A stretch of DNA of 64,000 bases from Desertivirga xinjiangensis (lineage in GTDB: Bacteria; Bacteroidota; Bacteroidia; Sphingobacteriales; Sphingobacteriaceae): NCBI RefSeq assembly GCF_024436435.1, contig NZ_JAFMZP010000001.1:310001-374000 (forward strand), in the 5' to 3' direction. The position numbers were made by a program, and so were the translations under genes. Position 1 is the first letter of the stretch. Every line of letters starts with the position of its first letter. Of this stretch, positions 17,487 to 18,335 are shown one piece after another. Under the pieces are notes generated by a model. The model searched no databases. It was not told the DNA's origin and saw only the letters and a program-made list of their open reading frames with translations.

Positions 17487-18335
17487 TTAATTTTTATTCG
17501 TGTAATAATTCAAAATATTAAAAATAGGCTTCCTTACTATCGCCGCAACTTCAAATCCGTAATCTGAAGCCGTTTGTTTCAGGATCCTCTGAAAAATATC
17601 AGCTACAGCACCTGTAAAATACAGCGGCAAATTTGGGTGTTTTTTTGCAAGTGGAAGTATATATGTTTCAAAATATATTTTCAGCCCACGTTTTACCAGT
17701 GTATCAACATATTCTGAATCTTTGTGCTCACCAAGAAATTCGGTAAATGAGGTGAGGTATAATACAGGCTGCGAATGCCGGTAAACTTTATCCAGAATCT
17801 GTTTTCGTTCCGGGTTGTATTTCTGAACAAAAATACTTTCAAATTTTTTAGGCATTGTATGAGTTAGGTAATCTTTTAAGAGCTGACGCCCTAACCAGTT
17901 TGCCGAACCCTCATCTGCCAGGATATACCCCAAGCCAAAATTGTTCTCTCTAACTTTTTTTCCGTTATAGTATGCGGCATTGGCTCCACTGCCCAGTACA
18001 CATATTATTCCCGGATTGTGCCCTGCGGTTGCTAAAGCAGAAGCGCTCAGGTCGTGATCTACAATGACCCTTGCATACCTGAAAAATTTGGTGAAAGCAC
18101 TTGTAATTATTTCTTTGCGCTCTTTTGAGGAAGCACCTGCACCGAAAAAATAAATTTTTTTTATTTCTTCAGCGTAGTTAATCAATTCGTTGTTTTTATT
18201 TAAAAGATTGCTGATGGCTTTTTTATCCGTAAGGTAAGGGTTAATGCCGACTGTTCTGAATTCAGAGATTATTTCACCTTTATCTGAAAGTTTCCAATCT
18301 GCATTTCTCGAACCGCTATAGATTACAGCAATCAT
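17487..18335 (-). CDS. BadF/N-acetylglucosamine-kinase-fold protein, probable pseudokinase
   Basis: This 282-residue protein aligns along its whole length with the kinase at 20207-21061. DHDL at 93-96 matches GHDL, GSGANA at 115-120 matches GTGTNT, and DEGS at 141-144 matches DEGS. The phosphate-1 loop is lost: the paralogue's DGGSTKT (6-12) reads YSGSRNA here, replacing the Mg/ATP-binding Asp6 by Tyr. ASKHA kinases depend on that aspartate, so catalysis is doubtful. It lies between pfkA (5-base gap) and gapA (4-base gap), so it is surely co-expressed with glycolysis. A sensor or scaffold role is inference. Confidence 0.8.

What the first reader, a model, noticed from the sequence alone, without database searches (positions are those of the whole stretch)
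17487..18335. Probable pseudokinase embedded between pfkA and gapA
The protein aligns end to end with the intact kinase at 20207-21061, with the same spacing of GHDL/DHDL, GTGTNT/GSGANA and DEGS, but its phosphate-1 loop changed from DGGSTKT to YSGSRNA. ASKHA kinases need that aspartate for Mg-ATP. Keeping the fold and phosphate-2 side while losing phosphate-1, inside a tight operon with two glycolytic enzymes, suggests a sugar or sugar-phosphate sensor or an allosteric partner of PfkA or GapA.
Basis: partly seen in the sequence, partly recalled or inferred. Interest (0 to 1): 0.72.

Follow-up and report, generated by a model that had tools for sequence, protein, structure and literature searches.

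The report
Conserved pseudokinase in a glycolysis operon
Many members of one bacterial family keep, between two core sugar-burning enzymes, a sugar-kinase look-alike that has lost its ATP grip but kept its sugar pocket, so it probably senses a sugar instead of phosphorylating it.

Summary
The gene (282 aa, minus strand) lies in a tight pfkA–gene–gapA operon and has the fold of the Bacteroidota MurNAc/GlcNAc kinases MurK and K1058 (Z about 34). Its phosphate-1 loop reads YSGSRNA instead of D[G/S]GSTKT. The change is not local. Of 70 distinct proteins found directly upstream of gapA in Sphingobacteriaceae loci, the 69 full-length ones all have Tyr or Phe at the Asp position, and none keeps the loop's Thr or Lys; the 70th is a split gene. 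Other ATP-side residues are lost too, while sugar-side residues, including catalytic Asp95, are nearly invariant. The proteins form one clade without the loop columns, under purifying selection. In other Bacteroidia families a kinase with intact loop can sit directly behind pfkA. Best reading: a sugar- or sugar-phosphate-binding pseudokinase serving glycolysis as sensor or regulatory subunit. The partner is unproven; GapA fits better than PfkA, since three loci lack pfkA but keep the gene with gapA. By-product: an NrtR/AraR-like regulator beside the operon and a palindrome before pfkA, eno, pgk, pyk and fbp outline a candidate glycolytic regulon.

The parts
17487..18335 (-). pseudokinase gene, 282 aa, MurK/K1058-like fold
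18300..18320 (-). codons of residues 6-12, the lost phosphate-1 loop (YSGSRNA in place of DGGSTKT)
18051..18053 (-). codon of Asp95, equivalent to the catalytic Asp95 of MurK, kept in 69 of 69
18341..19324 (-). pfkA, ATP-dependent 6-phosphofructokinase, first gene of the operon
16484..17482 (-). gapA, type I GAPDH, third gene of the operon
19449..20147 (+). nudR, divergent NUDIX + NrtR/AraR-type winged-helix regulator
   Evidence: present in 20 of 20 named-genome loci
19355..19372 (-). candidate operator TTAGTGTA-N5-TACAC in the nudR/pfkA gap
   Evidence: a pattern with up to 2 mismatches is expected about once per window by chance, the case rests on recurrence across genomes
20207..21061 (-). 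active-type paralogue (kinB) with intact DGGSTKT loop; activity itself not tested

Best explanation
The protein is a genuine, selected pseudokinase of the BcrAD/BadFG-type MurNAc/GlcNAc kinase family. It forms one clade in Sphingobacteriaceae and probably arose by loss of the ATP-phosphate site in a kinase that sat behind pfkA. It should no longer hold Mg-ATP for phosphoryl transfer but keeps the hexose pocket. It most likely closes on a sugar or sugar phosphate and passes that state on by protein contact to a glycolytic partner: GapA first, PfkA second, a paralogous active kinase third. Shown here: fold (as a model), conserved loss, retained sugar residues, one clade, purifying selection, operon conservation. 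Inferred: origin behind pfkA, lack of activity, ligand binding, partner and direction of control.
For: Position 6 is Y63/F6 in 69 loop-defined proteins against D53/E3 in 56 active-type relatives; Thr10 and Lys11 0 of 69; Thr116 to Ser 69 of 69; position of adenine-stacking Tyr244 mostly Ala/Ser/Asp/Gly. Sugar-contact residues are kept: Ser9 68, Asn32 68, Gly67 69, Asp95 69, Asn119 67, Asp141 69 of 69 (roles from PMC10465942). Non-circular count by gene position: 69 full-length of 70 proteins upstream of gapA, none acidic at position 6. One clade, SH-aLRT 100, loop columns removed, 17 of the 69 used. dN/dS 0.085 and 0.038 in the two unsaturated pairs. AF2 model pLDDT 90.6. True gaps (stop codon subtracted) pfkA-gene -4 to 9 nt in 61 of 67, gene-gapA 1 to 10 nt in 60 of 70. 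Best matches of at least 245 bits in 128 of 151 family genomes.
Against: No binding, activity or interaction data exist. 23 of 151 family genomes lack a match at that level, some with pfkA and gapA side by side, and in one genome the gene is split (L076), so it looks dispensable. Loop position 10 varies (R46 N13 K6 H3 D1), which does not favour one fixed phosphate contact. The partner is not identified: adjacency may reflect co-expression only. The Mg-ATP role of the Asp is general knowledge of the fold (recalled); the MurK structures showed no clear Mg.
Confidence: 0.65

Rival explanations
1. It is a non-catalytic partner subunit of an active paralogue (kinB or another), forming a heterodimer that stabilises or activates the real kinase, as TsaB does for TsaD (recalled).
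For: MurK and K1058 are dimers whose interface lies mostly in the C-terminal helical part, and the MurK interface grows on sugar binding (PMC10465942 passages). kinB lies within 3 kb in 14 of 20 named loci, and three active-type paralogues are in the own genome.
Against: In 4 of 20 named loci (L052, L053, L057, L059) no kinB lies in the flank of about 5 kb although the pseudokinase is kept; in L055 a kinB piece is cut at the edge, and L054's flank is too short to judge. kinB persists without the pseudokinase in L124, L127 and L128. No interface test was possible.
Confidence: 0.17
2. It is still an enzyme: the rebuilt loop, with Arg, Asn or Lys at position 10, serves another phosphoryl donor or a slow or reverse reaction.
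For: Gly8, Ser9, Gly115, Gly117, Asp95 and Asp141 are kept in at least 68 of 69, and K1058, with Glu at position 6, still works slowly.
Against: No acidic residue at position 6 in 69 of 69, no fixed replacement at 10 and 11, and the adenine-stacking residue is mostly lost. No acidic residue beside the loop is invariant (residue 13 varies).
Confidence: 0.1
3. It is a decaying gene kept only because its reading frame couples translation of pfkA and gapA.
For: 4-5 nt spacing, lower conservation than kinB (mean identity 0.59 over 18 proteins against 0.73 over 14 in the named loci), no match at orthologue level in 23 of 151 genomes, one split gene.
Against: dN/dS under 0.1 in both unsaturated pairs, nearly invariant pocket residues, clade-specific fixed residues, and persistence with gapA where pfkA is missing.
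Confidence: 0.06

Closest known systems
Tannerella forsythia MurK (8oqw, 8ow9) and K1058 (8oqk, 8ow7), BcrAD/BadFG-type sugar kinases
   Same: Same fold (Z 34.2 over 272 and 34.5 over 274 residues); same sugar-side residues and catalytic Asp95.
   Different: DxGxT (ExGxT in K1058) phosphate-1 loop, Thr116 and the adenine-stacking Tyr are replaced; embedded between pfkA and gapA.
ROK repressors NagC, Mlc, Lmo0178 (5f7r)
   Same: Sugar-kinase fold turned from enzyme to sugar-responsive regulator; Lmo0178 appears among the Foldseek matches.
   Different: No DNA-binding domain: the whole protein is the kinase core. No ROK match in Pfam.
Eukaryotic hexokinases that act as glucose sensors
   Same: Idea of a hexokinase-fold sensor (search listing only, papers not opened).
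   Different: Other family, other kingdom, no operon; no residue comparison was made here.
TsaB, degenerate partner of TsaD (recalled, no call)
   Same: ASKHA-fold pseudoenzyme that supports an active paralogue.
   Different: Other function; no evidence here for heterodimers.

Membership tests
BcrAD/BadFG-type MurNAc/GlcNAc kinase (PF01869, MurK-like) | fold and end-to-end similarity | tested here: met
   phmmer E 7.6e-42 to 1zbs, 1.1e-39 to 8oqw; Z 34
BcrAD/BadFG-type MurNAc/GlcNAc kinase (PF01869, MurK-like) | Pfam curated cut-off 31.5 bits | tested here: not met
   15.8 bits; the active-type paralogue also misses it with 26.6 bits, so this test is weak for the branch
BcrAD/BadFG-type MurNAc/GlcNAc kinase (PF01869, MurK-like) | DxGxT phosphate-1 motif | tested here: not met
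   Y/F at the Asp in 69 of 69, Thr in 0 of 69
BcrAD/BadFG-type MurNAc/GlcNAc kinase (PF01869, MurK-like) | catalytic Asp95 and sugar contacts Asn119, Asp141, Gly67 | tested here: met
   69, 67, 69 and 69 of 69
BcrAD/BadFG-type MurNAc/GlcNAc kinase (PF01869, MurK-like) | Mg-ATP dependent sugar phosphorylation | not testable with these tools
   needs purified protein
pseudoenzyme (pseudokinase) | conserved loss of a catalytically required residue with fold kept | tested here: met
   that the Asp is required is general knowledge of the fold (recalled)
pseudoenzyme (pseudokinase) | maintained by selection | tested here: met
   dN/dS 0.038 and 0.085 in two unsaturated pairs
pseudoenzyme (pseudokinase) | measured lack of activity | not testable with these tools
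   needs assay
ROK repressor | N-terminal helix-turn-helix plus ROK domain | tested here: not met
   no ROK or HTH family in Pfam up to E 1; the model starts directly with the kinase N-lobe

The most novel reading that the evidence does not exclude
Sphingobacteriaceae control glycolysis with a dedicated ligand-sensing pseudo-sugar-kinase that binds GapA (and perhaps PfkA) and sets its activity according to a hexose or hexose phosphate, inside a glycolytic regulon governed by an NrtR/AraR-like NUDIX regulator. This would be a protein-level control of bacterial GAPDH of a kind I know of no example of (recalled, not searched).
Probability: 0.25. Interest if true: 0.82.

Novelty: new variant of a known kind. 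Interest (0 to 1): 0.6.

Why it matters
Bacterial pseudokinases of the sugar-kinase fold without a DNA-binding domain seem hardly described: three searches of the held paper library returned no paper, and the 12 of 16 papers listed by a fourth were on plants, algae, fungi, animals or general reviews. This one is widespread in a bacterial family, sits in the core of glycolysis, and makes a clear prediction: sugar binding without ATP. By family similarity it risks being called an N-acetylglucosamine kinase (weak NCBIfam match), so flux models may count a reaction that it cannot do. It also suggests a natural series at one residue (Asp in fast MurK, Glu in slow K1058, Tyr/Phe here) that can be tested.

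Tried and rejected
Sequencing error or recent pseudogene: rejected, since the change is in 69 distinct proteins and selection is strong. The one break found is in G112 (L076): the frame splits after about 72 residues; whether this is an assembly error is open.

Circularity: the class 'pseudo' was defined by the loop itself; one search repeated the count by gene position alone and gave the same residue counts plus the split gene. Two fragments of active-type kinases under 265 residues (L061, L066) were dropped. The loci were fetched by similarity to the window protein, so a kinase between pfkA and gapA with an intact loop could in principle be missed. As a check, 18 genomes were searched with PfkA instead (14 of the family: 11 without the gene, 3 with pfkA away from it; 4 outside the family); none showed such a case within the fetched flanks.

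Compensating acidic residue next to the loop: residue 13 is often Asp but varies, rejected. PfkA as the sole partner: weakened by L063 (G009, genome only 76% complete), L071 (G145) and L078 (G066), where the only PfkA match lies elsewhere at 56-62% identity. Replacement of a missing glucokinase: ROK-family genes are present and three active-type paralogues. Orthologues outside the family: a profile search over 395 genomes (at most 6 candidates scored per genome) gave 15 family genomes at 394 bits or more and nothing outside the family above 301 bits; the loci of the 15 best outside genomes were read and all have D at the loop. The search 'order' returned only members of the same family. The sister group of the clade is unsure (SH-aLRT 58). 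Most dS values between genera were saturated, so only two pairs count. Sigma-70-type promoter and terminator scans were uninformative; no minus-strand terminator was listed between the three genes. Papers on NUDIX regulators with phosphofructokinase or glycolysis in Bacteroidetes: none on this regulator in the listings.

Full report
What is there. The ORF at 17487-18335 is on the minus strand and codes for 282 aa. It starts 5 nt after the stop of pfkA and ends 4 nt before gapA. Pfam and NCBIfam confirm PfkA and type I GAPDH. The protein aligns end to end with the product of 20207-21061 at 31% identity. The loop at residues 6-12 is YSGSRNA where the neighbour has DGGSTKT.

What it is. The closest solved proteins are the putative kinases 1zbs and 1zxo and the Tannerella forsythia kinases MurK and K1058. 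An AlphaFold2 model from 22 sequences (20 orthologues, the window protein and its paralogue) has mean pLDDT 90.6 and matches K1058 with Z 34.5 over 274 residues and MurK with Z 34.2 over 272. So the kinase fold is very probably intact.

What is lost and what is kept. In the MurK paper (PMC10465942) I saw the abstract, part 1 of 2 of section 8, sections 9 and 10, and searched passages. It says that Gly8, Ser9, Thr10 and Lys11 contact the ATP phosphates, Thr116 the beta-phosphate, that Tyr244 packs on the adenine, that Asp95 is the catalytic residue, and that Gly67, Asp95, Asn119 and Asp141 recognise the sugar. On an alignment of 69 distinct loop-defined proteins and 56 active-type relatives position 6 is Y63/F6 against D53/E3; position 10 is never Thr (R46 N13 K6 H3 D1); position 11 is never Lys; Thr116 is Ser in 69 of 69; position 246 (MurK Tyr244, two further on by the alignment) is A45 S7 D6 G5 F3 and others against Y38 F14 H4. 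Gly8 (68), Ser9 (68), Asn32 (68), Gly67 (69), Asp95 (69), Asn119 (67) and Asp141 (69) are kept. The ATP side is largely gone, the sugar side stays.

Is it a conserved change? The loop-defined count is circular, so I repeated it by gene position alone. Of 70 distinct proteins directly upstream of gapA on the same strand, 69 are full length and carry Tyr (63) or Phe (6) at position 6; the 70th is the downstream part of a split gene in G112. pfkA lies directly upstream in 67 of 70. In 20 of 20 loci from named genomes (Desertivirga, Pedobacter, Arcticibacter, Pararcticibacter, Mucilaginibacter, Pseudopedobacter and unclassified relatives) the order is nudR (divergent), then pfkA, gene, gapA; most of these are likely the same species as some G genomes. 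In 151 genomes of the family, 128 have a best match of at least 245 bits (E 5.9e-73 or better), 20 have only weaker matches and 3 have none. The loops of all 128 were not read. Of the 20, the best matches of 9 were read over the loop and all have D or E at position 6. A tree of 73 proteins (17 of the pseudokinase type, loop columns removed, quick method without bootstrap) puts them on one side of a single branch with SH-aLRT 100. dN/dS in the two unsaturated genome pairs is 0.085 and 0.038. The gene is less conserved than kinB (mean identity 0.59 against 0.73) but clearly selected.

Where it came from. In four loci of other Bacteroidia families (L110, L113, L115, L123; L132 is the L110 gene fetched again) pfkA is directly followed by a related kinase with an intact DSGSTK loop and no gapA behind it within the locus; in L123 a nudR homologue lies divergently upstream. 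The simplest history is that a kinase behind pfkA lost its ATP site in an ancestor of most Sphingobacteriaceae, with later losses; this is inference, since the sister group is not resolved (support 58). Five loci of the family have pfkA directly followed by gapA without the gene (L124 to L128).

How it probably works. With a complete hexose pocket and no phosphate-1 loop, the protein should close on a sugar or sugar phosphate without phosphorylating it; in MurK the N-terminal domain moves 4.5 to 6.9 A on sugar binding and the buried dimer surface grows. Such a movement can be read by a partner. Its place in the operon points to glycolytic enzymes. In three loci (G009, G066, G145) pfkA is missing from the cassette but gene and gapA are kept, and the residue counts of the loop-defined set and of the gapA-adjacent set agree, so GapA is the better first guess. 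Partner, ligand and direction of control are inference. A heterodimer with a paralogue is the main rival.

A side observation on the family: K1058 has Glu at position 6 where MurK has Asp. [quoted passage not shown] in the passages I saw position 6 is not discussed. Asp, Glu, Tyr/Phe may form a natural series.

Regulatory setting. The divergent gene at 19449-20147 has a NUDIX domain and an NrtR/AraR-type winged helix. Bacteroides AraR of this family is an arabinose-responsive regulator with a 21-bp site (PMC4666351, abstract, section 11 and a term search). In the nudR/pfkA gap a partial palindrome TTAGTGTA-N5-TACAC recurs: its 17-base core is exact in 14 of 20 named loci. In the whole genome 13 distinct sites fit with at most one mismatch. 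One is the pfkA site that gave the pattern. Of the other 12, eight lie upstream of eno, pgk, pyk, fbp, gltA, galK, an aldehyde-dehydrogenase-family gene (adhE-like by eye) and a sodium:solute symporter (families confirmed); four do not. At up to two mismatches the genome has no excess over the reversed control (105 against 149). At up to one mismatch G001 has 17 against 5, G015 21 against 3, G041 2 against 1; palindromic sites count on both strands there, so G001 has 14 distinct sites and G015 16. In G001, 8 of the 11 distinct sites with a locus lie before sugar or glycolysis genes, named by eye (pfkA operon, second pfkA, eno, pyk, adhE, galK, an active-type kinase paralogue, a permease). In G041 both sites do (pfkA, fbp). 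In G015 only eno and a permease stood out among 11, and its pfkA operon has no site at this stringency. So the pseudokinase probably belongs to a glycolytic regulon, best supported in the window's own genus; that NudR binds the motif is inference.

Verdict.

Noticed in passing
window 19355-19372 and 19449-20147; L166, L168-L170, L173, L178-L180: A palindrome TTAGTGTA-N5-TACAC(TAA) next to an NrtR/AraR-like NUDIX regulator recurs upstream of eno, pgk, pyk, fbp, an adhE-like gene, gltA, galK and a symporter: a candidate glycolytic regulon. Weak in G015.
   Followed up: partly
PDB 8oqk/8ow7 (K1058) against 8oqw (MurK); L081, L082, L084: K1058 and some family members carry Glu instead of Asp in the phosphate-1 motif; this may help explain the much slower rate of K1058.
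   Followed up: no
L076 (G112): The pseudokinase gene is split after about 72 residues in one genome, by frameshift or assembly error.
   Followed up: no
L078 (G066): The most degenerate loop, YSDSDGA, in a genome of 2.3 Mb whose cassette also lacks pfkA.
   Followed up: no
G000 C20:443801-444769 and C11:281168-282148: The genome has a second pfkA (57%) and a second GAPDH (45%) next to pgk; in G001 a second pfkA (by eye, L189) has the palindrome upstream.
   Followed up: partly
window 16436-16463: An inverted repeat followed by a T run on the minus strand after gapA looks like the operon terminator; seen by eye, not listed by the scan.
   Followed up: no
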